A program made the position numbers and the translations under genes. Of a stretch of DNA of 58,448 nt, positions 1-17,829 are shown in pieces. Position 1 is the first letter of the stretch. Each line of letters begins with the position of its first letter. Below the pieces are notes generated by a model. It did not search any database, had not been told where the DNA came from, and saw only the letters and a program-made list of their open reading frames with translations. The stretch is from a bacterium (GTDB lineage Bacteria > Bacillota > Bacilli > Lactobacillales > Streptococcaceae): the NCBI GenBank assembly GCA_905221115.1, contig CAJNBX010000010.1, positions 1-58,448 on the forward strand, written 5' to 3'.

Positions 1-30
1 TAATTCCACCATAAAAATCCGTTTTAGACT

Positions 31-100
31 AATTTCCACTTTGGTCAGGTGAGTGGAAGTTACTTTGAGAAGTTACCTCCTCCTATTCTAGAACGGGAGG
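31..100. other. Two hairpins upstream of the lic1 promoter
   Basis: Two short inverted repeats lie in the gene-free first 180 bases. The first pairs AATTTCCAC (31-39) with GTGGAAGTT (53-61); the second pairs CCTCC (79-83) with GGAGG (96-100). Neither has a clear T-run on either strand, so I do not call them terminators. They may belong to the end or leader of a neighbouring gene outside the window. Confidence 0.3.
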
Positions 101-111
101 GCCGGTATTTC

Positions 112-141
112 TTTCATGATAGGACTAGATTGTGGTATAAT
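112..141 (+). promoter_or_regulatory. lic1 operon promoter
   Basis: An extended -10 element is seen, TG-G-TATAAT with TATAAT at 136-141. The -35 is weak (TTTCAT at 112-117, 18-base spacer), as is common when the TGn extension is present. It lies about 40 bases upstream of the tarI start. No CiaR-type TTTAAG repeat pair was seen here. Confidence 0.6.
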
Positions 142-182
142 AGAGAGAATAAGTTTTTTTAGTAAGACAAAGGAGAAAATAG

Positions 183-890
183 ATGATTTATGCAGGAATT
201 CTTGCTGGTGGAACTGGCACACGCATGGGAATCAGTAACTTGCCAAAACAATTTTTAGAGCTAGGTGATCGACCTATCTTGGTTCATACAATTGAAAAAT
301 TTGTCTTGGAACCAAGCATTGAAAAAATTGTAGTTGGTGTTCATGGAGACTGGGTTTCCCATGCAGAGGATCTTGTAGATAAATATCTACCTCTTCATAA
401 GAATCGTATCATCATTACAAAAGGTGGTGCTGACCGTAATACGAGTATTGAGAAAATCATTGAAGCCATTGATGCTTATCGTCCGCTTACTCCAGAGGAT
501 ATCGTTATTACCCACGATTCTGTTCGTCCATTTATTACACTTCGCATGATTCAAGACAATATCAAACTTGCCCAAAATCATGACGCAGTGGACACAGTGG
601 TTGAAGCGGTTGATACTATCGTTGAAAGTACTAATGGTCAATTTATTACAGATATTCCAAATCGTGCTCACCTCTATCAAGGACAAACACCTCAAACATT
701 CCGTTGCAAGGACTTCATGAATCTTTACGGTTCTCTCTCTGCTGAAGAGAAGGAAATCTTGACAGATGCATGTAAAATCTTTGTGATCAAAGGAAAAGAT
801 GTGGCCTTGGCCAAAGGTGAATATTCAAATCTAAAAATTACAACCGTAACAGATTTGAAGATTGCAAAAAGTATGATTGAGAAAGACTAG
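183..890 (+). CDS. tarI: TarI, ribitol-5-phosphate cytidylyltransferase
   Basis: The 235-residue protein would make CDP-ribitol from ribitol-5-phosphate and CTP in the cytoplasm, for the ribitol-phosphate part of streptococcal teichoic acids. It is an IspD/TarI-family nucleotidyltransferase: the N-terminal LAGGTGTRMG loop (about residues 7-16) binds CTP, followed by the PKQF segment and the DSVRPF motif near residue 112. The start has a strong ribosome-binding site, AAAGGAG. It is the first gene of tarI-tarJ-licA-licB-licC, which argues for the teichoic-acid role over the isoprenoid enzyme IspD. The next gene starts 4 bases after its stop. Confidence 0.93.
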   Translation: MIYAGILAGGTGTRMGISNLPKQFLELGDRPILVHTIEKFVLEPSIEKIVVGVHGDWVSHAEDLVDKYLPLHKNRIIITKGGADRNTSIEKIIEAIDAYRPLTPEDIVITHDSVRPFITLRMIQDNIKLAQNHDAVDTVVEAVDTIVESTNGQFITDIPNRAHLYQGQTPQTFRCKDFMNLYGSLSAEEKEILTDACKIFVIKGKDVALAKGEYSNLKITTVTDLKIAKSMIEKD

Positions 891-894
891 TAAA

Positions 895-1917
895 ATGATT
901 AATCAAATTTATCAACTAACTAAGCCTAAGTTTATCAATGTCAAATATCAGGAAGAGGCTATTGACCAAGAGAATCATATCCTCATCCGCCCTAATTATA
1001 TGGCAGTCTGTCATGCGGATCAGCGTTACTACCAAGGAAAACGTGATCCCAAGATTTTGAATAAAAAGCTTCCAATGGCGATGATTCACGAGTCATGTGG
1101 AACCGTTATTTCTGACCCGACGGGAACCTATGAGGTTGGTCAAAAAGTTGTCATGATTCCAAATCAGCCTCCTATGCAGAGTGATGAAGAATTCTATGAG
1201 AACTACATGACAGGGACCCATTTCTTGTCTAGTGGTTTTGATGGCTTTATGAGAGAGTTTGTTTCTCTCCCTAAAGACCGTGTGGTGGCTTATGATGCTA
1301 TCGAAGACACGGTTGCAGCGATTACAGAGTTTGTCAGTGTCGGCATGCACGCTATGAATCGTCTATTGACCCTTGCTCATAGCAAGCGTGACCGAATCGC
1401 CGTTATCGGAGATGGAAGTTTAGCTTTTGTGGTTGCCAATATTATCAACTATACTTTGCCAGAAGCAGAGATTGTGGTTATTGGTCGTCATTGGGAAAAA
1501 TTGGAACTTTTCTCATTTGCCAAAGAATGCTATATTACTGACAATATTCCTGAAGATTTGGCCTTTGACCATGCTTTTGAGTGTTGTGGTGGTGATGGTA
1601 CTGGACCAGCCATTAATGACTTGATTCGCTATATTCGTCCTCAGGGAACGATTCTCATGATGGGTGTTAGCGAGTATAAAGTCAATCTCAATACACGCGA
1701 TGCCTTAGAAAAAGGCTTGCTCTTAGTTGGATCTTCTCGTTCTGGTCGCATCGATTTTGAAAATGCAATCCAAATGATGGAAGTCAAGAAATTTGCCAAT
1801 CGTCTTAAAAATATCCTTTATCTAGAAGAACCTGTAAGAGAAATTAAAGATATTCACCGTGTCTTTGCAACCGATTTAAACACAGCCTTTAAAACCGTGT
1901 TTAAGTGGGAAGTATAA
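895..1917 (+). CDS. tarJ: TarJ, ribulose-5-phosphate reductase
   Basis: A zinc-type alcohol-dehydrogenase family protein of 340 residues that reduces ribulose-5-phosphate to ribitol-5-phosphate with NADPH, feeding TarI. It shows the catalytic-zinc CHAD segment near residue 38, a MIHE motif and a Rossmann glycine stretch, GDGSLAFV, in the middle. An in-frame ATG at 877 would overlap tarI, but MINQIYQL at 895 matches the family start, so I use it. It lies between tarI and licA and is surely co-transcribed with them. Confidence 0.92.
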   Translation: MINQIYQLTKPKFINVKYQEEAIDQENHILIRPNYMAVCHADQRYYQGKRDPKILNKKLPMAMIHESCGTVISDPTGTYEVGQKVVMIPNQPPMQSDEEFYENYMTGTHFLSSGFDGFMREFVSLPKDRVVAYDAIEDTVAAITEFVSVGMHAMNRLLTLAHSKRDRIAVIGDGSLAFVVANIINYTLPEAEIVVIGRHWEKLELFSFAKECYITDNIPEDLAFDHAFECCGGDGTGPAINDLIRYIRPQGTILMMGVSEYKVNLNTRDALEKGLLLVGSSRSGRIDFENAIQMMEVKKFANRLKNILYLEEPVREIKDIHRVFATDLNTAFKTVFKWEV

Positions 1918-1933
1918 GTCCTGGAGGTTAATT

Positions 1934-2803
1934 GTGGAGAAAATCATTAAAGAAAAAATTTCTTCCCTACTTAGTCAAGAAGAGGAAGTCCTCAGTGTTG
2001 AACAACTGGGGGGAATGACCAATCAAAACTATTTGGTCAAAACAACAAATAAGCAATACATTGTTAAGTTCTTTGGTAAAGGGACAGAAAAGCTGATCAA
2101 TCGTCAAGATGAAAAGTATAATCTTGAACTACTAAAGGATTTAGACTTAGATGTAAAAAATTATCTTTTTGATATTGAAGCTGGTATCAAAGTAAATGAG
2201 TATATCGAATCTGCGATTACGCTTGATTCAACGTCAATCAAGACCTAATTTGATAAAATTGCTCCAATATTACAAACCATTCATGCTTCTGGTAAGGAAT
2301 TAAGGGGAGAATTTGCTCCTTTTGAAGAAATTAAAAAATACGAATCTTTGATTGAGAAAAAAATCCCTTATGCCAACTATGAAGCAGTTAGAGAAGAAGT
2401 CTTCTCCTTAGAGAAAAGACTGGCTGACTTAGGTGTTGACAGAAAATCTTGTCATATTGATTTGGTGCCTGAAAACTTTATCGAGTCACCACAAGGACGA
2501 CTTTATCTGATTGACTGGGAATATTCATCAATGAACGATCCAATGTGGGATTTGGCTGCTCTCTTTTTAGAGTCTGAATTCACTCGTCAAGAGGAAGAAG
2601 CCTTCTTATCTCACTATGAGAGTGAGCAAACACCTGTCTCTCGTGAAAAGATTGCCATTTATAAAATTTTACAAGATGCTATTTGGAGTCTATGGACAGT
2701 CTACAAAGAAGAGCAAGGTGCAGATTTTGGTGACTATGGTGTGAGTCGTTACCAAAGAGCTGTTAAAGGTTTGTCATATTATGGAGGTTTAGATGAAAAA
2801 TAA
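1934..2803 (+). pseudogene. licA: licA (pck) choline kinase, interrupted by an in-frame stop
   Basis: Choline kinase phosphorylates imported choline as the first step of teichoic-acid phosphocholine decoration. A GTG start at 1934 (site GGAGG) opens a frame that meets TAA at 2246-2248 after 104 codons. The same frame is then open from 2249 to the stop at 2801-2803. Read through, the product has 289 residues, the family's usual length. The first part keeps the nucleotide-binding N-lobe. The catalytic HIDLVPEN segment and the IDWEYSS metal-binding motif both lie after the stop, so the truncated product should be inactive. By recall the pneumococcal codon here is lysine AAA, so one A-to-T change explains the stop. 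Flanking licB and licC are intact. A sequencing error is the main alternative. Confidence 0.85.
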
Positions 2804-3671
2804 AAATGGAGTTTCTTTTGGTCTACTCTCAGGTATTTTCTGGGGGTTAGGTCTAACGATTAGTGCTTATATCTTTTCGATTTTTACAGATTTGTCGCCC
2901 TTTGTGGTGGCCGCTGCTCACGATTTCTTGAGTATCTTTATCCTACTAGCTTTTCTTTTAGTAAAAGAAGGAAAAGTTCGTCTCTCAATTTTCTTAAATA
3001 TTCGCAATGTTAGTGTGATCATTGGAGCCTTGCTAGCTGGTCCTATCGGTATGCAGGCCAATCTTTATGCGGTTAAGTATATCGGGAGTTCCTTAGCTTC
3101 ATCTGTATCGGCTATCTACCCTGCAGTTTCAGTTTTATTGGCTTTCTTCTTTTTAAAGCACAATATTTCAAAAAATACTGTGTTTGGGATTGTCTTGATT
3201 ATTGGAGGGATAATTGCTCAGACCTATAAGGTTGAAAAGGTCAATTCCTTCTACATTGGGATTCTCTGTGCTTTGGTTTGTGCTATTGCATGGGGGAGTG
3301 AGAGTGTCCTTAGCTATTTTGCCATGGAAAGTGAATTGAGTGAAATCGAAGCCCTCTTAATCCGTCAAGTAACTTCATTCTTGTCCTATTTTGTGATTGT
3401 GCTCTTCTCTCATCAGTCATTTGCAGAAGTGGCCAATGGACAATTGTTAGGTCTCATGATTGTCTTTGCAGCCTTTGATCTGATTTCCTACTTGGCTTAT
3501 TATATCGCTATCAATCGCTTGCAACCAGCCAAGGCTACAGGTCTTAACGTGAGTTATGTAGTTTGGACTGTCTTGTTTGCAGTTGTTTTCTTGGGTGCAC
3601 CGCTAGATATGCTGACAATTATTACGTCACTTGTCGTCATTGCTGGAGTTTATATTATTATTAAAGAATAA
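2793..3671 (+). CDS. licB: LicB, choline permease
   Basis: A 292-residue inner-membrane protein of the EamA/DMT transporter superfamily with about ten hydrophobic helices in two repeats, for example the GLTISAYIFSIF region early and a GVYIIIKE end. In the lic1 locus it imports choline for phosphorylation by LicA. Its start overlaps the licA end by 11 bases, which suggests translational coupling; a ribosome-binding site (ATGGAGG) lies within the licA tail. It appears intact although licA is not. Confidence 0.92.
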   Translation: MKNKNGVSFGLLSGIFWGLGLTISAYIFSIFTDLSPFVVAAAHDFLSIFILLAFLLVKEGKVRLSIFLNIRNVSVIIGALLAGPIGMQANLYAVKYIGSSLASSVSAIYPAVSVLLAFFFLKHNISKNTVFGIVLIIGGIIAQTYKVEKVNSFYIGILCALVCAIAWGSESVLSYFAMESELSEIEALLIRQVTSFLSYFVIVLFSHQSFAEVANGQLLGLMIVFAAFDLISYLAYYIAINRLQPAKATGLNVSYVVWTVLFAVVFLGAPLDMLTIITSLVVIAGVYIIIKE

Positions 3672-3682
3672 AGGAAATTCGT

Positions 3683-4369
3683 GTGAAAGCCATTATCTTA
3701 GTAGCGGGATTGGGAACTCGCTTGCGTCCTATGACTGAAAATACCCCTAAAGCCTTGGTTCAAGTTAATCAAAAACCTTTGATTGAATACCAAATTGAGT
3801 TTCTCAAAGAAAAAGGAATCAATGACATCATCATCGTTGGTTACCTTAAAGAACAATTCGATTACTTAAAAGAAAAATATGGTGTTCGCCTCGTTTTCAA
3901 TGATAAATACGCTGACTACAATAACTTTTACTCTCTCTATCTTGTAAAAGAAGAATTGGCAAACAGCTATGTTATTGATGCTGACAATTATCTCTTTAAA
4001 AATATGTTCCGCAATGATTTGACACGTTCGACTTATTTTAGTGTTTATCGTGAAGATTGTACCAACGAATGGTTCTTGGTCTATGGAGATGACTACAAGG
4101 TTCAAGACATTACTGTTGATAGTAAGGCAGGTCGCATCCTTAGTGGTGTATCCTTCTGGGATGCTCCAACTGCAGAAAAGATTGTCAGCTTTATCGATAA
4201 GGCCTATGCAAGTGGTGAATTTGTTGATCTCTATTGGGACAATATGGTTAAGGACAATATCAAAGAGCTAGATGTCTATGTTGAAGAACTAGAAGGCAAT
4301 AGCATCTATGAAATCGATAGTGTCCAAGATTATCATAAATTAGAAGAAATTCTTAAAAACGAAAATTAA
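3683..4369 (+). CDS. licC: LicC, phosphocholine cytidylyltransferase
   Basis: Makes CDP-choline from phosphocholine and CTP, the donor for LicD transferases acting on teichoic acid. The 228-residue protein starts with the sugar-nucleotide transferase signature GLGTRLRPMT (about residues 9-18), followed by NTPKALV and the metal-binding DADNYLF motif near residue 98. GTG at 3683 is chosen because AAAGGAA lies just upstream and the family starts at this MKAIIL. It is the last gene of lic1. With licA interrupted, its substrate would be lacking. Confidence 0.92.
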   Translation: MKAIILVAGLGTRLRPMTENTPKALVQVNQKPLIEYQIEFLKEKGINDIIIVGYLKEQFDYLKEKYGVRLVFNDKYADYNNFYSLYLVKEELANSYVIDADNYLFKNMFRNDLTRSTYFSVYREDCTNEWFLVYGDDYKVQDITVDSKAGRILSGVSFWDAPTAEKIVSFIDKAYASGEFVDLYWDNMVKDNIKELDVYVEELEGNSIYEIDSVQDYHKLEEILKNEN

Positions 4370-4376
4370 AGATTCC

Positions 4377-4408
4377 AACATCTGGCTAAAATAGTCGGAT
4401 GTTTTTTT
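4377..4408 (+). terminator. Terminator of the lic1 operon
   Basis: Stem AACATC-TGGCT against AGTC-GGATGTT, followed by seven T residues. It separates lic1 from the competence-controlled dprA. Confidence 0.8.
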
Positions 4409-4416
4409 GATTTTTT

Positions 4417-4424
4417 TACGAATA
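4417..4424 (+). promoter_or_regulatory. Com box (ComX/sigma-X promoter) of dprA
   Basis: TACGAATA, an exact match to the streptococcal late-competence -10 box, with a T-rich stretch just before it, 33 bases upstream of the dprA start. It directs transcription by RNA polymerase carrying the competence sigma factor ComX. Confidence 0.9.
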
Positions 4425-4457
4425 AATAGATGAGTAGAAAAAGAAATGGAGATATTT

Positions 4458-5306
4458 ATGAAAATCACAAACTATGAAATCTATAAGTTAAAAAAATCAG
4501 GTTTGACCAATCAACAGATTTTGAATGTCCTAGAATACGGTGAAAATGTTGATCAAGAACTGTTGTTAGGTGATATTGCAGATATATCAGGTTGCCGAAA
4601 TCCAGCTGTTTTTATGGAACGTTATTTTCAGATAGACGATGCGCATTTGGAGAAGGAGTTTCAAAAATTTCCATCTTTTTCTATTTTAGATGACTGTTAC
4701 CCTTGGGATTTGAGTGAAATATACGATGCTCCTGTGCTTTTATTTTACAAGGGCAATCTCGACCTCTTGAAATTTCCAAAAGTCGCGGTTGTGGGTAGTC
4801 GTGCTTGTAGCAAACAGGGAGCTAAGTCAGTTGAAAAAGTCATTAAAGGCTTGGAAAATGAACTGGTTATTGTCAGTGGCTTAGCCAAGGGTATCGATAC
4901 AGCAGCTCATATGGCAGCTCTTCAGAATGGCGGAAAAACCATTGCAGTGATTGGAACAGGACTGGATGTGTTTTATCCTAAAGCCAATAAACGCTTGCAA
5001 GACTACATCGGCAATGACCATCTGGTTCTAAGTGAATATGGACCTGGTGAACAATCTCTAAAATTTCATTTTCCTGCCCGTAATCGCATCATTGCTGGAC
5101 TTTGTCGAGGTGTGATTGTAGCAGAGGCCAAGATGCGCTCAGGTAGTCTCATTACCTGTGAGAGGGCAATGGAAGAAGGTCGTGATGTTTTTGCTATTCC
5201 TGGTAGCATTTTAGATGGACTATCAGACGGTTGCCATCATTTGATTCAAGAAGGGGCAAAATTGGTCACCAGTGGGCAGGATGTTCTTGCGGAATTTGAA
5301 TTTTAA
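4458..5306 (+). CDS. dprA: DprA, DNA processing protein for transformation
   Basis: Binds incoming single-stranded DNA in competent cells, loads RecA on it, and in pneumococcus also shuts off competence by binding phosphorylated ComE. The 282-residue protein has an N-terminal SAM-like domain, then an extended Rossmann fold with VVGSRACSKQG (about residues 110-122), LAKGIDTAAH near 142 and the RNRIIAGL DNA-binding segment near 208. An in-frame ATG 12 bases earlier exists, but the MKITNY start has the GGAG site and matches the pneumococcal protein. It stands alone behind a com box. Confidence 0.95.
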   Translation: MKITNYEIYKLKKSGLTNQQILNVLEYGENVDQELLLGDIADISGCRNPAVFMERYFQIDDAHLEKEFQKFPSFSILDDCYPWDLSEIYDAPVLLFYKGNLDLLKFPKVAVVGSRACSKQGAKSVEKVIKGLENELVIVSGLAKGIDTAAHMAALQNGGKTIAVIGTGLDVFYPKANKRLQDYIGNDHLVLSEYGPGEQSLKFHFPARNRIIAGLCRGVIVAEAKMRSGSLITCERAMEEGRDVFAIPGSILDGLSDGCHHLIQEGAKLVTSGQDVLAEFEF

Positions 5307-5456
5307 TACTCTTCGAAAATCTCTTCAAACCACGTCAGCTTCACCTTGCCGTAGGTATGGTTACTGACTTCGTCAGTCTCATCTGCAACCTCAAAGCAGT
5401 GCTTTGAGCAACCTGCGGTTAGTTTCCTAGTTTGCTCTTTGATTTTCATTGAGTAT
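5306..5456. repeat. BOX element, boxA-boxB-boxC
   Basis: A complete 151-base BOX repeat. BoxA begins ATACTCTTCGAAAATC and contains the reverse complement of the BOXA1R primer site. BoxB follows with the TACTGACTTCGTCAGT palindrome and the TCAAAGCAGTGCTTTGA stem. BoxC ends with TTTTCATTGAGTAT. BOX elements are non-coding repeats of pneumococcus and its relatives. This one begins inside the dprA stop codon and lies upstream of the topA promoter. Confidence 0.92.
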
Positions 5457-5511
5457 AAGACGAAATTTCGCTTACTAGATAAACTTTTCTTCTATATATA
5501 GGAGCTAAGTC

Positions 5512-5540
5512 TTGACAGTTATGGCAAAATGGTTTACACT
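5512..5540 (+). promoter_or_regulatory. topA promoter
   Basis: TTGACA at 5512-5517, 17-base spacer, TACACT at 5535-5540, about 35 bases before the topA start and downstream of the BOX element. Confidence 0.75.
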
Positions 5541-5575
5541 TTATAAAGTTTATTACTTTGAAAAGGTGTGATACT

Positions 5576-7663
5576 GTGGCTACGGCAACAAAAAAGAAAA
5601 AATCAACAGTAAAAAAAAATCTAGTAATCGTGGAGTCGCCTGCTAAGGCCAAGACGATTGAAAAATATCTAGGCAGAAACTACAAGGTTTTAGCCAGTGT
5701 CGGGCATATCCGTGATTTGAAGAAATCCAGTATGTCCGTCGATATTGAAAATAATTATGAACCGCAATATATCAATATCCGAGGAAAAGGTCCTCTTATC
5801 AATGACTTGAAAAAAGAAGCTAAAAAAGCTAATAAAGTCTTTCTGGCGAGTGACCCGGACCGTGAAGGAGAAGCGATTTCTTGGCATTTGGCCCATATTC
5901 TCAACTTGGATGAAAATGATGCCAACCGTGTGGTCTTCAATGAAATCACCAAGGATGCGGTCAAAAATGCTTTCAAAGAGCCACGCAAGATTGATATGGA
6001 CTTGGTCGATGCCCAACAGGCACGCCGTGTCTTGGACCGCTTGGTAGGGTATTCGATTTCGCCTATTTTGTGGAAGAAGGTCAAGAAGGGCTTATCAGCA
6101 GGGCGCGTACAGTCCATTGCCCTTAAACTCATCATTGACCGTGAGAATGAAATTAATGCCTTCCAGCCAGAAGAATACTGGACAATTGATGGCGTCTTTA
6201 AAAAGGGAACCAAGCAATTCCAGGCTGCTTTCTATGGAGTAGATGGCAAAAAGATGAAACTGACTAGCAATGACGAGGTTAAGGAAGTCTTGTCTCGTCT
6301 GACTAGTAAAGACTTTTCAGTGGATCAGGTGGATAAGAAAGAGCGCAAGCGCAATGCTCCATTACCTTATACAACTTCGTCCATGCAGATGGATGCGGCT
6401 AATAAAATCAATTTCCGTACTCGAAAGACCATGATGGTTGCCCAACAGCTCTACGAAGGGATCAATATCGGTTCTGGTGTGCAAGGTTTGATCACCTATA
6501 TGCGTACCGATTCGACTCGTATCAGTCCAGTAGCGCAGAACGAAGCAGCAAGTTTCATTACAGACCGTTTTGGTAGCAAGTATTCTAAGCATGGTAGCAA
6601 GGTTAAAAATGCTTCCGGAGCTCAGGATGCCCACGAGGCTATTCGTCCGTCTAGCGTCTTTAATACACCGGAAAGCATCGCTAAGTATCTGGACAAGGAT
6701 CAGCTTAAGCTTTATACCCTTATCTGGAATCGTTTTGTAGCTAGCCAGATGACAGCTGCTGTCTTTGATACCATGGCCGTTAAATTGTCTCAAAATGGGG
6801 TTCAATTTGCTGCTAATGGTAGTCAGGTTAAGTTTGATGGTTATCTTGCCATTTATAATGATTCTGATAAGAATAAGATGTTACCAGATATGGCTGTTGG
6901 AGATGTGGTCAAACAGGTCAATAGCAAACCAGAGCAACATTTCACCCAACCACCTGCCCGCTATTCTGAAGCGACACTGATCAAGACCTTGGAGGAAAAT
7001 GGGGTTGGACGTCCGTCAACCTACGCACCAACCATTGAAACAATTCAGAAACGTTATTATGTTCGCCTTGTAGCCAAACGTTTTGAACCAACAGAGTTGG
7101 GAGAAATTGTTAACAAGCTCATCGTTGAATATTTCCCAGATATCGTAAACGTGACCTTCACAGCTGAAATGGAAGGCAAACTAGATGATGTCGAGGTCGG
7201 AAAAGAGCAGTGGCAACGTGTTATTGATGCCTTTTACAAACCATTCTCTAAAGAAGTGGCCAAGGCTGAAGAAGAAATGGAAAAAATCCAAATCAAGGAT
7301 GAACCAGCTGGATTTGACTGTGAAGTATGTGGCAGTCCAATGATCATTAAACTTGGTCGTTTTGGTAAGTTTTACGCTTGTAGCAATTTCCCAGATTGCC
7401 GCCATACCCAAGCAATCGTGAAAGAGATTGGTGTTGAGTGTCCAAGCTGTCATCAAGGTCAAATCATTGAGCGTAAAACCAAGCGTAACCGCCTCTTCTA
7501 TGGTTGCAATCGCTATCCAGACTGTGAATTTACTTCTTGGGACAATCCTGTTGGTCGTGACTGTCCAAAATGTGGCAAATTCCTCATGGAGAAAAAAGTC
7601 CGTGGTGGTGGCAAGCAGGTTGTATGTAGTAATGGCGACTACGAAGAAGAAAAGATTAAATAA
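5576..7663 (+). CDS. topA: TopA, DNA topoisomerase I
   Basis: Type IA topoisomerase that relaxes negative supercoils. The 695-residue protein has a basic N-terminus, the Toprim domain beginning VESPAKAKT near residue 20 with DPDREGE, the catalytic tyrosine in TYMRTDST near 308, and three C-terminal four-cysteine zinc ribbons starting near 581, 621 and 662. GTG at 5576 gives the family start MATATKKKK and has AAAGGTG upstream; an ATG 18 bases earlier lacks a site. Transcribed alone from its own promoter and terminator. Confidence 0.95.
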
Positions 7664-7668
7664 GAGGA

Positions 7669-7699
7669 GAGTCCTGAAAGTGAATTTCAGGCTCTTTTT
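7669..7699 (+). terminator. topA terminator
   Basis: Stem GAGTCCTGAAA paired with TTTCAGGCTC around a short loop, then TTTTT. Confidence 0.85.
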
Positions 7700-7768
7700 G
7701 ATTAGTGCTTGACAAAATTCACCATTGTATGCGAAACTAGAAGAAGATTATTTTAACTAGGAGTAGCT

Positions 7769-8128
7769 ATGCGTATTATTTATCTTATTATTGGTTTTTT
7801 ATCACTGGCCTTGGCTATTGTTGGGGTTGTTTTACCTTTATTACCGACAACGCCTTTTCTTTTGTTGTCAATTGCTTGTTTCTCCAGAAGTTCCAAGCGC
7901 TTCGAAGATTGGCTTTACCATACCAAGCTCTATCAAGCATATGTAGCTGACTTTCGTGAGACCAAGTCCATTGCGCGTGAACGTAAGAAAAAAATCATCG
8001 TATCCATCTACATCTTGATGGGGATTTCCATTTATTTTGTTCCTCTACTACCAGTTAAAATCGGTCTGGGAGCTTTAACCATCTTTATCACCTACTATCT
8101 CTTTAAGGTTATTCCAGACAAAGAATAG
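7769..8128 (+). CDS. DUF454 (YbaN-like) small membrane protein
   Basis: A 119-residue protein with an N-terminal pair of hydrophobic helices around the motif VLPLLPTTPFLLL, a soluble charged middle (SRSSKRFEDWL) and two further helices (VSIYILMGISIYFV and the region after VKIGLG). This layout is typical of DUF454/YbaN, whose function is not established. Ribosome-binding site TAGGAG. It stands between topA and cutC as its own short unit. Confidence 0.8.
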   Translation: MRIIYLIIGFLSLALAIVGVVLPLLPTTPFLLLSIACFSRSSKRFEDWLYHTKLYQAYVADFRETKSIARERKKKIIVSIYILMGISIYFVPLLPVKIGLGALTIFITYYLFKVIPDKE

Positions 8129-8181
8129 TTAAAATAGTAGTTATTTCCCTTGATAAAATTGAAAGCATATTCACAATAATA

Positions 8182-8190
8182 TGATATAAT
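8182..8190 (+). promoter_or_regulatory. cutC promoter, extended -10
   Basis: TGATATAAT, an extended -10 element, about 30 bases before the start. No convincing -35 at the proper distance. Confidence 0.6.
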
Positions 8191-8220
8191 AAATTCAAAG
8201 TAATACTCAAGGAGAATCAA

Positions 8221-8853
8221 ATGATTTACGAATTTTGTGCTGAAAATGTGACCTTGCTTGAAAAAGCGATGCAGGCTGGAGCTCGAAGGATTGAACTTTG
8301 TGACAATCTAGCAGTTGGTGGGACAACACCCAGCTACGGAGTGACCAAGGCAGCAGTTGAATTGGCAACCAACTACGATACGACCATTATGACCATGATT
8401 CGTCCACGTGGTGGCGATTTTGTCTATAATGAACTAGAAATTGCTATCATGCTAGAAGATATTCGTTTGAGTGCTCAGGCTGGAAGTCAAGGAGTTGTAT
8501 TTGGTGCCTTAACTGCTGAGAAGAAGTTGGATAAAGCTAATCTTGAGAAGCTAATTGCTGCATCAAAAGGTATGGAAATTGTCTTCCACATGGCCTTTGA
8601 TGAATTGACTGATGAAGATCAGTTGGAAGCCATTGACTGGCTTAGCCAAGCTGGTGTCACCCGTATCTTAACTCGTGCTGGAGTATCTGGTGACTCGCTT
8701 GACAAACGTTTTGCTCACTATCACAGAATTTTGGAACATGCTAAAGGTAAAATTGAAATTCTACCAGGTGGGGGGATTGACTTGGACAACCGTCAAATCT
8801 TTATCGACCAGCTGGGTATAACACAATTGCATGGAACCAAGGTTGTCTTTTAA
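8221..8853 (+). CDS. cutC: CutC-family protein (putative copper homeostasis)
   Basis: A 210-residue TIM-barrel protein of the CutC family. It begins MIYEFCAENV, has the RRIELCDNLAVGGTTPSYG segment and the IRPRGGDFVY motif, and ends with LPGGGI and a HGTKVVF tail. CutC was named for copper tolerance in E. coli, but its biochemical role remains unsettled. The start follows AAGGAG by a normal distance. No metal-transport genes lie nearby. Confidence 0.88.
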   Translation: MIYEFCAENVTLLEKAMQAGARRIELCDNLAVGGTTPSYGVTKAAVELATNYDTTIMTMIRPRGGDFVYNELEIAIMLEDIRLSAQAGSQGVVFGALTAEKKLDKANLEKLIAASKGMEIVFHMAFDELTDEDQLEAIDWLSQAGVTRILTRAGVSGDSLDKRFAHYHRILEHAKGKIEILPGGGIDLDNRQIFIDQLGITQLHGTKVVF

Positions 8854-8860
8854 AAAATAG

Positions 8861-8892
8861 AAAGGAACTGCTAGCTTTGGGTAGCAGTTTTC
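8861..8892 (+). promoter_or_regulatory. Hairpin between ribosome-binding site and start codon of the MmcQ gene
   Basis: AAAGGA (8861-8866) is followed at once by a perfect 8-base-pair stem, AACTGCTA (8866-8873) with TAGCAGTT (8882-8889), loop of eight. The ATG is at 8897, about 30 bases from the AGGA in line but about seven if the hairpin is looped out. It could instead be a weak cutC terminator, since four T residues follow. Confidence 0.6.
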
Positions 8893-8896
8893 ACTT

Positions 8897-9553
8897 ATGT
8901 TTGAAATTTTTAAATCTTACCAGTTTAATCAAGAAAAAGCTCGTGCTTATGGTTTTGTAGAAAATGAGGAGGTCTGGACCCATAGTTGCCAGATTTTGCA
9001 GGGTGATTTTGTCATGACAGTCTCCATCACTACTGATAATGTGAGTTTTCAGGTCTTTGACCGGGAAACGGGCGATCTCTATCCTCAAGTTCATATGCAA
9101 AGTATGAGAGGAAGTTTTGTTGCAAGTGTCCGTGAGGCTTGTTTGGAGATTCTTTGCCAGATATGGAAGACTTGTTTTGATATTCAGGATTTCATCTGTC
9201 CTCAGACTAAACGTATCATGGATCAAGTTCAGGAAAAGTACGGAAATCAGTTGGAGTATCTGTGGGAGAAATCGCCTGATTCGGCAGTGTTAAGACATGA
9301 AGGCAATCAAAAGTGGTATGCTGTTTTGATGAGAATCTCTTGGGATAAGCTGGAAAAGGGCAGAGAAGGACTAGTCGAAGCAGTCAACCTCAAACACGAC
9401 CAAGTATCCGATTTACTTTCACAAAAGGGTATTTATCCAGCTTTTCATATGAACAAACGCTACTGGATTAGTGTGGCTTTTGATGATACGTTTTCAGATG
9501 AAGAGGTGCTAGAATTGATAGAGAAAAGTTGGAGCTTAACCTCTAAAAAATGA
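8897..9553 (+). CDS. MmcQ/YjbR family protein
   Basis: A 218-residue protein. The C-terminal half (from about residue 95) carries the MmcQ/YjbR fold recognised by WYAVLMRISWDKL, the VNLKHDQV segment and the PAFHMNKRYWISVAFDD stretch. The N-terminal part (MFEIFKSYQFNQEKARAYGF) is an extra domain common in streptococcal members. The fold is described as CyaY-like and DNA-binding, but the function is not known. Its translation start is unusual because a hairpin lies between the ribosome-binding site and the ATG. Confidence 0.78.
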   Translation: MFEIFKSYQFNQEKARAYGFVENEEVWTHSCQILQGDFVMTVSITTDNVSFQVFDRETGDLYPQVHMQSMRGSFVASVREACLEILCQIWKTCFDIQDFICPQTKRIMDQVQEKYGNQLEYLWEKSPDSAVLRHEGNQKWYAVLMRISWDKLEKGREGLVEAVNLKHDQVSDLLSQKGIYPAFHMNKRYWISVAFDDTFSDEEVLELIEKSWSLTSKK

Positions 9554-9608
9554 AATATTTTAAGGATTTTCAAGAACTTTCAATTAGCTAAATATTCTAT
9601 ACTGAAGA

Positions 9609-9623
9609 AATTTTCAGAAAATA
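9609..9623 (+). promoter_or_regulatory. CodY box of the leu operon
   Basis: AATTTTCAGAAAATA matches the CodY consensus AATTTTCWGAAAATT at 14 of 15 positions. It lies 12 bases upstream of the -35 of the leu promoter. CodY with bound branched-chain amino acids represses such operons. Confidence 0.8.
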
Positions 9624-9635
9624 TTGGATTTTTTC

Positions 9636-9664
9636 TTGACAAGTGTTTTTAGCTATGCTAAAAT
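9636..9664 (+). promoter_or_regulatory. leu operon promoter
   Basis: TTGACA at 9636-9641, 17-base spacer, TAAAAT at 9659-9664. Transcription should begin near 9671, about 30 bases before the leader peptide. Confidence 0.88.
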
Positions 9665-9700
9665 ACTAAACAAGATATCAAACGAAGGAGAAAGTCAAAC

Positions 9701-9754
9701 ATGAAAACAGCTAAGTTTAATCAATTTGCTTTGTTGTTGAGGTACTCGGGCTAG
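9701..9754 (+). CDS. leuL: leu leader peptide
   Basis: A 17-codon open frame, MKTAKFNQFALLLRYSG, preceded by the strong site AAGGAGAAA. Three consecutive TTG leucine codons sit in the middle, so ribosome speed there senses charged leucine tRNA. It is followed by the alternative RNA structures of an attenuator. This is classic leader-peptide attenuation of the downstream leucine operon. Confidence 0.88.
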   Translation: MKTAKFNQFALLLRYSG

Positions 9755-9764
9755 TGCAAAAAGC

Positions 9765-9838
9765 ATTGGTCCTGTTTGGCTTACCAAGCGGGAGTGAATC
9801 AACATCTCGCTTGGACTTCTAAGCGAGATGTTTTTTTA
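9765..9838 (+). terminator. Leucine attenuator (terminator and antiterminator)
   Basis: The terminator pairs AACATCTCGCTT (9801-9812) with AAGCGAGATGTT (9821-9832), then a T-run. The competing antiterminator pairs CCAAGCGGGAG (9784-9794) with CTCGCTTGG (9806-9814), leaving one bulged G and consuming the terminator's left arm. A third segment, TTGGT near 9765, can pair with ACCAA near 9783 and so block the antiterminator when the ribosome does not stall. Confidence 0.85.
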
Positions 9839-9867
9839 AAAACCACATTTGGAAAAGGGGAAATCTT

Positions 9868-11430
9868 ATGAGAACAGTTGAATTTCTAGATACCAGCCTT
9901 CGGGATGGAGAGCAGACGCCGGGTGTTAACTTTTCAATCAAAGAAAAAATTGCCATAGCAAGGCAGCTGGAGAAATGGGGCATTTCGGCCATTGAAGCTG
10001 GTTTTCCAGCGGCTAGCCCAGACTCATTTACGGCAGTGCAGGAGATTGCTAAGGTCTTGAAGAAAACAGCGGTGACTGGTTTGGCTCGCTCTGTTAAATC
10101 TGATATTGATGCTTGCTACGAGGCCCTCAAGGACGCCAAGTATCCACAGGTTCATGTCTTTATCGCTACCAGTCCGATTCATCGCAAGTATAAGCTCAAT
10201 AAGAGCAAGGAAGAGATTTTGGAAGCTATCAAGGAGCATGTTTCTTATGCTCGTTCTAAGTTTGAAGTGGTCGAATTCTCTCCTGAAGATGCGACTAGAA
10301 CAGAGTTGGATTTCCTCTTGCAAGTTGTTCAAACAGCGGTTGATGCAGGGGCGTCTTATATCAATATCCCTGACACGGTTGGATTTACTACACCAGAAGA
10401 GTATGGAGCAATCTTCAAACACCTGATTGAGAATGTCAAGACGGATCGTCAGATTATCTATTCGCCTCACTGCCACGATGACCTTGGAATGGCAGTGGCT
10501 AATAGCCTTGCTGCTGTCAAGAACGGAGCAGGACGTGTTGAAGGGACTATCAATGGTATTGGGGAGCGAGCTGGAAATGCTGCTCTTGAAGAAATTGCAG
10601 TGGCTCTCAACATTCGCCAAGATTACTATCAAGCAGAGACCAGTATTGTCCTAAATGAGACTATCAATACGTCAGAAATGGTTTCTCGCTTCTCTGGTAT
10701 TCCAGTTCCTAAAAACAAGGCTGTGGTTGGTGGCAATGCCTTCTCTCACGAGTCCGGTATTCACCAAGACGGAGTCCTTAAAAATCCTCTCACTTATGAG
10801 ATTATCACACCTGAATTGGTTGGTGTTAAGAGCAATAGTCTCCCGCTTGGTAAATTGTCTGGTCGCCATGCCTTTGTTGAAAAACTAAGAGAATTGGCTC
10901 TAGATTTTACAGAAGAGGATATCAAGCCACTCTTTGCTAAGTTCAAGGCACTGGCAGACAAGAAACAAGAAATCACAGATGCAGATATTCGAGCTCTGGT
11001 AGCTGGAACCATGGTTGAAAACCCAGAAGGCTTCCATTTTGATGATTTACAACTTCAAACTCATGCAGATAATGACATCGAAGCGCTTGTTAGCCTAGCT
11101 AATATGGATGGTGAGAAAGTTGAGTTCAATGCGTCAGGACAAGGTTCTGTTGAAGCAATCTTTAACGCTATCGATAAGTTCTTTAACCAATCTGTTCGCT
11201 TGGTATCCTATACTATCGATGCGGTGACAGATGGAATCGATGCCCAGGCTCGGGTCTTGGTCACTGTTGAAAACAGAGATACAGAAACCATCTTTAACGC
11301 AGCAGGTCTTGATTTCGATGTGTTGAAAGCTTCGGCTATTGCCTATATTAACGCTAATACCTTTGTTCAAAAAGAGAATGCAGGTGAGATGGGACGGAGC
11401 GTTTCCTATCGCGATATGCCTAGTGTGTAG
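9868..11430 (+). CDS. leuA: LeuA, 2-isopropylmalate synthase
   Basis: Condenses acetyl-CoA with 2-oxoisovalerate, the committed step of leucine synthesis. The 520-residue protein has the HMGL-like TIM barrel with [12 protein letters not shown] at residues 8-19, the metal-binding HCHDD near 201 and the GIGERAGN motif near 232. A C-terminal LeuA regulatory domain (about 390-510) is the site of leucine feedback inhibition. Site AAAGGGGAAA. First gene after the attenuator. Confidence 0.96.
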
Positions 11431-11441
11431 AGGAGAATGCT

Positions 11442-12479
11442 ATGACAAAGAAAATAGTAGCTCTAGCAGGGGACGGAATCGGTCCAGAAATCATGGAGGC
11501 TGGTTTAGATGTTCTGGAGGCTCTAGCTGAAAAAACAGGTTTTGACTATGAGATTGATAGAAGACCCTTCGGAGGTGCAGGTATTGATGCTGCAGGGCAT
11601 CCCTTACCTGATGAAACCCTCAAGGCAAGTAGGGAAGCAGATGCTATCCTACTAGCAGCTATCGGTAGTCCTCAGTATGATGGAGAAGCGGTACGCCCTG
11701 AACAAGGATTGCTGGCTCTCCGTAAGGAACTCAATCTTTACGCTAATATTCGGCCTGTAAAAATCTTTGATAGTCTCAAACATTTGTCACCACTCAAACC
11801 AGAACGAATTGCTGGTGTAGACTTTGTCGTGGTGCGTGAGTTGACAGGTGGTATCTACTTTGGGGACCATATCCTTGAAGAGCGAAAAGCGCGTGATATC
11901 AACTACTATAGCTATGAGGAAGTGGAGCGGATTATTCGTAAGGCCTTTGAAATCGCAAGAAGTCGCAGAAAAATCGTTACTAGTATCGATAAGCAAAATG
12001 TTCTAGCGACCTCAAAACTCTGGCGGAAAGTGGCTGAGGAAGTCGCGCAGGATTTCCCAGATGTAACCTTGGAACACCAGCTGGTAGACTCAGCTGCCAT
12101 GCTCATGATTACCAATCCTGCCAAGTTCGATGTCATCGTGACGGAGAATCTTTTCGGAGATATCTTATCTGATGAATCAAGCGTTTTATCAGGCACACTT
12201 GGAGTCATGCCATCAGCCAGTCATTCTGAAAAGGGTCCAAGTCTCTATGAGCCCATTCACGGTTCGGCACCCGATATTGCAGGTCAAGGAATTGCCAATC
12301 CTATTTCCATGATTTTATCAGTTGCCATGATGTTGAGAGATAGTTTCGGACGTTATGAGGATGCGGAACGTATCGAGCATGCTGTTGAGGCAAGTTTAGC
12401 CGCTGGCATTTTAACAAGAGATATAGGTGGACAGGCTTCGACCAAGGAAATGACGGAAGCTATTATTGCAAGGATATGA
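11442..12479 (+). CDS. leuB: LeuB, 3-isopropylmalate dehydrogenase
   Basis: Oxidises and decarboxylates 3-isopropylmalate with NAD+. The 345-residue protein shows LAGDGIGPEI at its start, the arginine-rich substrate segment RELTGGIYFG, and the metal-binding NLFGDILSDE motif near residue 235, then the adenosine-binding HGSAPDIAG. It starts 11 bases after leuA, and its stop overlaps the next start as ATGA. Confidence 0.96.
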   Translation: MTKKIVALAGDGIGPEIMEAGLDVLEALAEKTGFDYEIDRRPFGGAGIDAAGHPLPDETLKASREADAILLAAIGSPQYDGEAVRPEQGLLALRKELNLYANIRPVKIFDSLKHLSPLKPERIAGVDFVVVRELTGGIYFGDHILEERKARDINYYSYEEVERIIRKAFEIARSRRKIVTSIDKQNVLATSKLWRKVAEEVAQDFPDVTLEHQLVDSAAMLMITNPAKFDVIVTENLFGDILSDESSVLSGTLGVMPSASHSEKGPSLYEPIHGSAPDIAGQGIANPISMILSVAMMLRDSFGRYEDAERIEHAVEASLAAGILTRDIGGQASTKEMTEAIIARI

Positions 12480-15753: not shown

Positions 15754-17829
15754 ATGATTTCAAAACAAACTTTCATTGGCAGGATAAAAAAAGAATTCCC
15801 AGATGCAATTGAAAATCAAACAAAAAGTTATATTTCTTTTCAGGTTAAGAATAGGAAAGGAAAGTTACAAAATTTTATAGAGATTAATTTTCAGAATAAA
15901 GGAATAAAGATTGCCGTTCTCTCTAAAAGTCTTCGTGATTCAGATATTTTGTTGTTTAATAAGAGGCCTGATTCATTCGGTTGGACACTTGATGCTGAGT
16001 ATTTTATTAAGGACGAAAATTCATTAAATGAGATTTTACCTTTTATAAATAAATCTTATGAGTTTGTAAAAAGTGGAGTTAATTTAGAGCGTTATCAAGT
16101 CTTCAGAGAATTTTTGTCTAAATTTGTGAATCAAGCAAATATCTATAATTCGAAAGATATAGACATTAAACGTTCTCCAAAATTAGATGGAGCTGAACAT
16201 CTTTATCCTGCTCTGACTATTGAGGGTATTCCGTACAAAGTTCAAATGGCTAGTAATGGTTGTTATGGTCCAAAGAGTGGAGAGGGATCTAGAAAATTAC
16301 CTTACTTTGGTTATCAATTAAATAAAATTGATAATTCATGGATAAATATAAGGTGTGGTTTTCAGCAATCAAAACTCACAGAATTTAAAATAGTAAAATG
16401 GTATAGTAATAATCCAGATGAAGATTTAGAGTATAAATACCTTGTCAAGGACTTAGAGTTGGAATCAACTGCTGAACCTAACGATATTTTAAAAGAGTTT
16501 TATGATAATTTCACTAGTTTTTATAGGAAAGAAGAAATGAAAGATGTAAACATGTTAGAAAATATCAACGAGTATAAGAATATCTTATTACAATCCAAAA
16601 ACATCATCCTACGTGGTGCACCGGGGACGGGAAAAACTTATCTTGCTAAAGAAATTGCTAAAGAATTAACGGATGGTAACGAAGATCGAATCGGCTTTGT
16701 ACAGTTTCACCCATCTTATGACTATACGGATTTTGTAGAGGGTTTAAGACCGGTATCAAATGGGGATGGAGCTATTGAGTTTAAATTACAAGATGGTATT
16801 TTTAAAGAGTTTTGTTTGAAAGCAAAGAAAAATTGGCTTTATTCACATAAAAACAAGGATGATTTAGAAAAGGAAAAAAAATCAATAGCAAAGATTTCAA
16901 AATATTTTGCTAATATGGAGTTTCCGTCTGACAAGTTATATACAAAACGTCAATCGTCCTTTATCATTACAGAAATTGATGAAAATTACATTTATATATC
17001 TATTCCTGAAAATGAGGTATCAAAAAATGCAAAATTGAAAATTAAAGATATCGAAGCAATGTTAACTTCAGAATCTCAATTTGAACATGTTAAAGATATA
17101 ACTCAGTTTTTTAATAAAAATAATGCAACCCAAGAATTTTCATACTATTTGACACTTTACAAAATGATAAAAAATGAAAGTATTCAGGATGAAATAATAG
17201 AAATAGATAATGAATTGAAAAACTTCGTTTTCATCATCGATGAGATCAATCGTGGGGAGATTTCTAAGATTTTTGGTGAACTCTTTTTCTCTATCGATCC
17301 TGGTTATCGTGGTGAAAAGGGAAGTATTTCTACCCAGTATGCTAATTTACATGAGACTGATGAGAAATTTTATATCCCTGAGAATGTCTACATCATTGGA
17401 ACTATGAATGATATTGACCGCTCAGTGGATACCTTTGATTTTGCTATGCGTCGTCGTTTCCGTTTTGTTGAAATTACTGCTGAAAGTCAACTTGGTATGC
17501 TTGATGAGGTGCTTGGTGATAAAGCTGAAGAAGCGAAAAAACGTCTAAGAAACTTGAATACTGCTATTGAAAACGTTCAGGAATTAAACAGTCATTACCA
17601 TATCGGACCAAGTTATTTCCGTAATTTAAAAGAATTGGATTATGACTATGAATTACTCTGGTCTGATTACCTCAAACCTCTTTTGGAAGATTATCTACGT
17701 GGTTCTTATGACGAGGTTGAAACTCTGGAAACTTTAAAAAAGGCATTTGATCTGACAAAGAATGAGCAAAAAGATCAGGCAGTAGCTGATGACAATGAAG
17801 GCGATGAAAACGATGCTGCGGATTACTGA
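15754..17829 (+). CDS. mcrB: McrB-like AAA+ GTPase of a McrBC restriction system
   Basis: The motor and DNA-recognition subunit of a type IV-like restriction system. The 691-residue protein has three parts. Residues 1-110 resemble a DUF5655-like domain (FGWTLDAEYFI, INKSYEF). Residues 130-255 form a second N-terminal module that I do not recognise. The AAA+ domain runs from Walker A GAPGTGKT near 287 to Walker B FIIDEINRG near 493, then GTMNDIDRS near 549 and RRRFRF. McrB enzymes use GTP, and NDID fits the MNxxD signature. About 110 residues (375-485) are inserted between Walker A and B. Site AAGGAAA. The gene is more AT-rich than its neighbours, suggesting acquisition. Confidence 0.87.
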   Translation: MISKQTFIGRIKKEFPDAIENQTKSYISFQVKNRKGKLQNFIEINFQNKGIKIAVLSKSLRDSDILLFNKRPDSFGWTLDAEYFIKDENSLNEILPFINKSYEFVKSGVNLERYQVFREFLSKFVNQANIYNSKDIDIKRSPKLDGAEHLYPALTIEGIPYKVQMASNGCYGPKSGEGSRKLPYFGYQLNKIDNSWINIRCGFQQSKLTEFKIVKWYSNNPDEDLEYKYLVKDLELESTAEPNDILKEFYDNFTSFYRKEEMKDVNMLENINEYKNILLQSKNIILRGAPGTGKTYLAKEIAKELTDGNEDRIGFVQFHPSYDYTDFVEGLRPVSNGDGAIEFKLQDGIFKEFCLKAKKNWLYSHKNKDDLEKEKKSIAKISKYFANMEFPSDKLYTKRQSSFIITEIDENYIYISIPENEVSKNAKLKIKDIEAMLTSESQFEHVKDITQFFNKNNATQEFSYYLTLYKMIKNESIQDEIIEIDNELKNFVFIIDEINRGEISKIFGELFFSIDPGYRGEKGSISTQYANLHETDEKFYIPENVYIIGTMNDIDRSVDTFDFAMRRRFRFVEITAESQLGMLDEVLGDKAEEAKKRLRNLNTAIENVQELNSHYHIGPSYFRNLKELDYDYELLWSDYLKPLLEDYLRGSYDEVETLETLKKAFDLTKNEQKDQAVADDNEGDENDAADY

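What the first reader, a model, noticed from the sequence alone, without database searches (positions are those of the whole stretch)
1934..2803. Choline kinase licA carries an in-frame stop before its catalytic residues
TAA at 2246-2248 cuts the protein at residue 104, while the same frame stays open to the normal end and the total length equals the family's 289 residues. The catalytic HIDLVPEN and IDWEYSS motifs are beyond the stop. tarI, tarJ, licB and licC are intact. If real, the strain could not phosphorylate choline, although pneumococcus normally needs choline. It would then be choline-independent, perhaps through a changed TacF flippase, or it would use readthrough.
Basis: partly seen in the sequence, partly recalled or inferred. 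Interest (0 to 1): 0.75.

Follow-up and report, generated by a model that had tools for sequence, protein, structure and literature searches.

The report
Broken choline kinase in oral streptococcus
A mouth streptococcus carries a broken copy of the gene that prepares choline for its cell wall; related strains have broken the same gene in other ways and carry a second, fused enzyme of the same kind, so the loss is probably real and tolerated rather than fatal.

Summary
In detail: TAA at 2246-2248 closes licA after residue 104, and licA is the only broken gene of 42 compared over about 50 kb. The organism is of the S. mitis complex; its own assembly is not held. The pneumococcus framing and the changed-TacF idea find no support.
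licA is broken in four of 38 other S. mitis-type genomes by four other lesions: a G6 tract read as 5, 7 or 9 G, and a one-base deletion. Those four, and none of the 34 licA-intact ones, carry tacF-licD1-licD2 moved next to a 592-aa LicC-like/LicA-like fusion. Their TacF is nearly unchanged and their choline-binding-repeat counts are low. Two of them share with the window an IS30-like edge upstream of tarI; one also shares a licC codon loss.
Best reading: a real null allele, made dispensable by a second amino-alcohol kinase/cytidylyltransferase feeding LicD1/LicD2/TacF. Whether that enzyme uses choline or ethanolamine is open; ethanolamine would explain the reported S. mitis SK598 teichoic acid. 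The cassette was not seen in the window strain itself.

The parts
1..77 (.). Edge of an IS30-like element, ending about 105 bp upstream of tarI
   Evidence: Window 1-182 aligns with L008 (97.8%) and L131 (85.3%) through this edge; most other S. mitis-type loci align only from 78/79 on; L058 (infantis-like) also matches it. In L131 the element holds a 402-aa ORF with HTH_38; the name IS30 is recalled.
183..890 (+). tarI, ribitol-phosphate cytidylyltransferase, open
   Evidence: IspD PF01128 134.8 bits; full length against G002; gene name recalled
877..1917 (+). tarJ, dehydrogenase, open
   Evidence: ADH_N and ADH_zinc_N; full length against G002; gene name recalled
1934..2248 (+). licA, 5' part, open for 104 codons and closed by TAA
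   Evidence: ORF list; PF01633 26.1 bits
2008..2013 (+). G6 tract in licA codons 25-27, the place where three relatives differ in length (5, 7, 9)
2246..2248 (+). In-frame TAA stop, codon 105
2249..2803 (+). licA, 3' part beyond the stop with the catalytic motifs; a 151-aa TTG ORF at 2348-2803 lies in it
   Evidence: ORF list; PF01633 52.9 bits
2793..3671 (+). licB, choline permease of the EamA family, open
   Evidence: EamA PF00892 99.8 bits; gene name recalled
3683..4369 (+). licC, phosphocholine cytidylyltransferase, open but one codon short in a run of isoleucines
   Evidence: NTP_transferase PF00483 47.7 bits; gene name recalled

Best explanation
The window carries a real null allele of licA in a strain of the S. 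mitis complex, one of several independent losses of this gene. Shown in four licA-broken relatives: tacF, licD1 and licD2 sit in the teichoic-acid repeat-unit cluster beside a 592-aa protein (winged helix, LicC-like cytidylyltransferase, LicA-like kinase), followed by an NCS1-like permease in the three whose contigs continue. Inferred: this cassette takes over uptake, phosphorylation and CDP-activation of an amino alcohol for LicD1/LicD2, so TacF still receives decorated chains, and licA, then licB and licC, can decay. Inferred by association: the window strain has the same cassette. Open: the amino alcohol. Choline is possible; the thinning of choline-binding proteins leans to phosphoethanolamine, as reported for S. 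mitis SK598.
For: licA is the only broken gene of 42 compared. Four other S. mitis-type genomes have four different licA lesions; one of them, M334, has also lost 283 bp across licB/licC. licA is broken in 4 of 38 S. mitis-type genomes and open in 61 of 61 other genomes of the genus with LicA of 77% identity or more. The fusion beside tacF-licD1-licD2 is in 4 of 4 licA-broken and 0 of 34 licA-intact S. mitis-type genomes (p 1.4e-5). The fusion, first seen in three of them, was then predicted for and found in the genome of L008. Its domains match solved LicC (1jyk, 1.6e-39) and LicA (4r77, 2.2e-25) and keep T29, N30, D176, N181, D194, E196 and Y197, W251, W254, Y268. TacF is conserved. Choline-binding repeats are 21-34 in the broken genomes and 41-113 in 32 of 34 intact ones. 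The window shares the IS30-like edge with L008 and L131, and the short licC with L008.
Against: The window strain's own fusion, tacF and licD were not seen; its assembly is not held. The fusion also occurs in G174 and G199 with licA intact, at another site, and in 25 further genomes of the genus (mostly S. oralis-type by LicA identity) whose licA is open, so it does not by itself make licA dispensable. Cage residues do not tell choline from ethanolamine: ethanolamine kinase 2qg7 shows similar residues. N32, V178 and E213 are changed in the fusion. licA-intact S. oralis-type genomes also have few repeats (22-58 in 31 genomes). A CHAP-type choline-binding protein is open in 3 of 4 broken genomes, and Pce is full length in G201. 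Low repeat counts (16, 18) also occur in two licA-intact genomes, G093 and G030. The 38-genome set was chosen after the fact.
Confidence: 0.6

Rival explanations
1. The stop is a sequencing or assembly error and licA is intact in the strain.
For: No reads are available and the window strain's assembly is not held. The G-tract lesions of three relatives sit in a homopolymer, where such errors are common.
Against: No other gene of 42 is broken; the window's change is not in the tract; the same gene is broken in a single-contig genome by a deletion outside the tract, and M334 has a second, large lesion; the broken genomes are exactly those with the fusion beside lic2.
Confidence: 0.13
2. The fused enzyme is a choline kinase/cytidylyltransferase and phosphocholine decoration continues unchanged; licA is simply redundant.
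For: LicA catalytic residues and aromatic cage kept; similarity to LicC and LicA; a source names relatives cholinephosphate cytidylyltransferase/choline kinase (P0052, P0096); TacF conserved; some choline-binding proteins still open.
Against: Fewer choline-binding repeats and a Pce-like gene full length in only 1 of 4 broken against 28 of 34 intact genomes (p 0.035); several choline-binding genes of the broken genomes are cut or frameshifted (no matched control); S. oralis-type genomes keep both licA and the fusion, so the two are not simply interchangeable there.
Confidence: 0.3
3. The strain is choline-independent through a changed TacF.
For: Such laboratory strains exist: PMC5513899 (passages) lists choline-independent mutants; the TacF role is recalled.
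Against: TacF of the four licA-broken relatives is 98-99% identical to the usual one, with V32L the only shared change against 22 others. The window's own tacF is not in view.
Confidence: 0.06
4. licA is a contingency gene switched off and on by slippage in its G6 tract.
For: 5, 7 and 9 G in three genomes. PMC10434233 (passages) describes a G tract in Neisseria pptA tied to phase-variable phosphocholine.
Against: The window and G201 lesions lie outside the tract; some S. mitis-type copies have an interrupted tract (L014, L019); M334 also lacks the licB/licC junction.
Confidence: 0.07
5. Readthrough of the TAA or re-initiation gives enough LicA activity.
For: The frame stays open to the end and a 151-aa TTG ORF follows.
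Against: The internal start would lack the P-loop residues T29 and N30 and the whole N lobe; TAA is a tight stop (recalled); other null alleles lie in the same gene.
Confidence: 0.04

Closest known systems
S. pneumoniae LicA choline kinase and lic1 operon (structure 4R77; PMC4364537, passages)
   Same: Gene order tarI-tarJ-licA-licB-licC, 289 codons, both pieces match the family
   Different: Closed after 104 codons, before the catalytic residues
S. mitis SK598 teichoic acid with ethanolamine in place of choline (PMC5513899, passages, citing Bergstrom 2003, not read)
   Same: S. mitis strain without phosphocholine, the outcome that the licA-broken, fusion-bearing genomes would predict
   Different: No SK598 genome was found or examined; the link is an inference
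Fused LicC-LicA type enzymes (annotated cholinephosphate cytidylyltransferase/choline kinase; a fused Treponema denticola enzyme is recalled)
   Same: Cytidylyltransferase and kinase in one chain
   Different: Here in the licA-broken genomes beside tacF-licD1-licD2, with an N-terminal winged helix
S. oralis and S. mitis lic-cluster variants (PMC4863584, passages)
   Same: Known variation of licD and teichoic-acid clusters
   Different: That paper reports licABC in all three species; the passages seen mention neither licA loss nor the fusion
Phase-variable phosphocholine genes (pptA G tract, PMC10434233, passages; H. influenzae licA repeats, recalled)
   Same: Tract-length differences in a phosphocholine gene in three relatives
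   Different: The window's lesion is a stop outside the tract

Membership tests
LicA choline kinase (PF01633) | Sequence match to the family | tested here: met
   N piece 26.1 bits (below the cut-off of 29), C piece 52.9 bits
LicA choline kinase (PF01633) | One open frame holding P-loop and catalytic residues | tested here: not met
   TAA at codon 105
LicA choline kinase (PF01633) | Position in the tarI-tarJ-licA-licB-licC operon | tested here: met
licA-broken, fusion-bearing S. mitis group | licA null | tested here: met
licA-broken, fusion-bearing S. mitis group | Fusion beside tacF-licD1-licD2 in the same genome | not testable with these tools
   Window strain's assembly not held; within the window the fusion matches only licA and licC
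licA-broken, fusion-bearing S. mitis group | IS30-like edge upstream of tarI (two of the four genomes; the other two not comparable or different) | tested here: met
   Shared with L008 and L131; M334 (L132) lacks it
Choline-independent TacF mutant | Altered TacF | not testable with these tools
   Not in the window; unchanged apart from V32L in licA-broken relatives
Phase-variable contingency gene | Lesion is a change of repeat-tract length | tested here: not met
   The window has the usual G6 and a stop elsewhere
SK598-type ethanolamine teichoic acid | Phosphoethanolamine in place of phosphocholine | not testable with these tools
   Needs chemistry

The most novel reading that the evidence does not exclude
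licA loss plus the relocated tacF-licD1-licD2/fusion/permease cassette is the genetic basis of a natural switch from phosphocholine to phosphoethanolamine teichoic acids in S. mitis, made several times, with later loss of choline-binding proteins.
Probability: 0.38. Interest if true: 0.78.

Novelty: new variant of a known kind. Interest (0 to 1): 0.55.

Why it matters
LicA is described as a key enzyme and a drug target because phosphocholine is thought to be needed by pneumococcus and its kin. A natural group that repeatedly drops licA while holding a second amino-alcohol activation cassette would show how the wall decoration can be rerouted. It gives a testable genetic explanation for the reported ethanolamine teichoic acid of S. 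mitis SK598, and warns that licA presence or absence does not by itself predict surface phosphocholine.

Tried and rejected
DD26 (L009, G146) first looked like an insertion in licA; it is a scaffold gap of N with overlapping ends and was dropped from the licA counts. A search of phage records gave nothing. Met28 re-initiation in the G5 and G9 alleles was considered because a stop and an ATG overlap there, but 262-aa gene calls are also recorded for SK564, whose full-length frame is open, so they are no evidence. Short LicA proteins in the large protein set include one frameshifted tail after residue 93 in 8 clusters (P0127-P0131, P0133, P0134, P0171), but contig ends and errors cannot be told apart, so they were not counted. 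Integrity of a CHAP-type choline-binding protein did not discriminate: it is also open in G093 and G030. The dprA+topA tree (25 rows, 4 of 22 inner branches well supported) shows only that the licA-broken genomes do not group. The aromatic cage as proof of choline specificity was given up. Papers recalled but not read: Kharat 2008 (look-up failed), Denapaite 2012, Hakenbeck 2009, Bergstrom 2003 (not looked up).

Full report
What was checked. TAA at 2246-2248 is codon 105 of the GTG frame that starts at 1934, and that frame runs on to 2803, 289 codons. The two pieces each match the choline kinase family, the N piece just below its cut-off; the catalytic motifs are in the C piece. tarI, tarJ and licB are open at full length; licC is open but one codon short.

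Is it an error? Of 42 ORFs of G002 placed on the window between 0.18 and 50.5 kb, 41 are open at full length and licA alone is not (one antisense row dropped). Reads are not available, so an error is not excluded, but the comparison below makes it the less likely reading.

Which organism? The window's own assembly is not held, and the nearest held genome shares 27% of its sampled 31-letter words. On dprA+topA (25 rows) the window lies in a mostly unresolved star of S. mitis-complex genomes, none more than 95% identical to it. So 'pneumococcus' should read S. mitis complex.

licA in relatives. Among 66 loci fetched with the C piece, four showed a break. One, DD26, is a scaffold gap and was dropped. 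The others are M334 (tract of 5 G instead of 6), S. hohhotensis IMAU99199 (7) and SK579 (9, with a change beside it). A search of 284 genomes of the genus added G201, a single-contig genome with a one-base deletion near codon 85. M334 has also lost 283 bp across the licB/licC junction. The S. mitis-type set used for counts is 38 genomes: the 38 handles without G146 (DD26), plus G180. It was chosen after the fact by LicA identity of about 92% or more; G233, also 92%, was left with the S. oralis type. licA is broken in 4 of these 38 and open in 61 of 61 other genomes of the genus with LicA of 77% identity or more (p 0.02). The lesions differ, which points to independent losses.

What these genomes share. 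Pneumococcal-type tacF, licD1 and licD2 stand beside tarI in many S. mitis-type loci (for example L001, L003, L137) but not in G201 or M334, the two licA-broken genomes with enough flank there; some licA-intact loci lack them too. In all four broken genomes they sit in the repeat-unit cluster, in the order licD3, two glycosyltransferases, a polymerase-like gene, a 344-aa gene, tacF, licD1, licD2, mobile-element remnants, a 592-aa fusion, an NCS1-like permease, a second flippase-like gene (G203's contig ends after the fusion; gene names partly recalled). The fusion has a winged helix, a cytidylyltransferase domain matching LicC (1jyk, 1.6e-39) and a kinase domain matching LicA (4r77, 2.2e-25). 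It keeps T29, N30, D176, N181, D194, E196 and the aromatic cage of LicA, with N32 to S, V178 to Y and E213 to C (residue roles from PMC4364537, passages). Having seen it in G201, G244 and G203, I expected it in the genome of L008 (IMAU99199); it was there, 99.7-100% identical to that of G201. The fusion beside tacF-licD1-licD2 is in 4 of 4 licA-broken and 0 of 34 licA-intact S. mitis-type genomes (p 1.4e-5). The fusion anywhere is in 4 of 4 and 2 of 34 (p 2e-4): G174 and G199 have it at another site with licA intact, in G174 next to a branched-chain-type ABC operon. In the 284 genomes 31 have it; 25 of these lie outside the S. mitis-type set and their licA is open; their fusion sites were not looked at.

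Link to the window. Bases 1-77 match the edge of an IS30-like element that lies at this place in L008 and L131 (G201) alone among the S. mitis-type loci compared, and in one infantis-like locus, L058. Of 76 loci, only the window, L008 and L039 (an S. oralis) have the short licC. So at this locus the window resembles two licA-broken genomes, but its fusion, tacF and licD are not visible.

How it probably works. TacF in the four genomes is 98-99% identical to the usual protein and shares one change, V32L, absent from 22 others, so a choline-independent TacF is not indicated. More likely the fused enzyme makes a CDP-amino alcohol, LicD1/LicD2 transfer the phospho-amino alcohol, and TacF still sees decorated chains. 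Choline-binding repeats number 21, 24, 30 and 34 in the broken genomes and 41-113 in 32 of 34 intact ones. The other two intact ones, G093 and G030 (16 and 18), have a cut licD3 and no licD1/licD2-type match, though G093 keeps another LicD-family gene. A full-length Pce-like gene (metallo-beta-lactamase plus choline repeats; name recalled) is in 1 of 4 broken and 28 of 34 intact genomes (two of the 28, G202 and G094, with one TAA in the match); of the six other intact ones, three have only a 51-52% relative and three no match at E 1e-60 (p 0.035). Several choline-binding genes in the broken genomes are frameshifted or cut (no matched control). This pattern fits loss of phosphocholine and a switch to phosphoethanolamine. 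Against it: 31 S. oralis-type genomes, licA open, have 22-58 repeats, and a CHAP-type choline-binding protein is open in 3 of 4 broken genomes. The cage cannot decide, because ethanolamine kinase 2qg7 shows similar residues.

What is in print. PMC5513899 (passages) cites Bergstrom 2003: S. mitis SK598 has ethanolamine instead of choline in WTA and LTA even in choline medium. PMC4863584 (passages) says all three species it studied contain licABC. [quoted passage not shown] PMC10434233 (passages) describes the pptA G tract of Neisseria. PMC12451636 (passages) treats S. hohhotensis as a synonym of S. mitis. Searches showed no paper, in the listings or in the passages read, on licA loss in S. mitis or on this streptococcal fusion; most subscription papers are not held.

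Verdict. The stop is probably real. It is not a sign of a TacF-altered pneumococcus but one of several licA losses in S. mitis strains that have a second activation route. The step from relatives to this strain, and the substrate of the fused enzyme, remain inference.

Noticed in passing
window 3683-4369: licC is one codon short in a run of isoleucines, shared with L008 and L039 only of 76 loci.
   Followed up: partly
window 2008-2013: G6 tract in licA; relatives have 5, 7 and 9 G here, a likely slippage site.
   Followed up: yes
L184 (G093) and L185 (G030): licA is intact but licD3 is cut and choline-binding repeats are few (16 and 18): perhaps another route to loss of choline decoration.
   Followed up: partly
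L132 6947-6951 (M334): A 283-bp deletion removes the end of licB and the start of licC.
   Followed up: yes
L180 (G174) 502-12202: Fusion followed by two copies of the NCS1-like permease next to a branched-chain-type ABC operon.
   Followed up: partly
L009 5835-5963 (DD26): licA is split by a scaffold gap of N with overlapping ends, an assembly artefact.
   Followed up: yes
proteins P0127-P0131, P0133, P0134, P0171: Eight protein clusters share one frameshifted LicA tail after residue 93, perhaps a circulating null allele.
   Followed up: no
window 15754-19132: Two ORFs (691 and 447 aa) with no counterpart in G002 between otherwise collinear genes; not identified.
   Followed up: no
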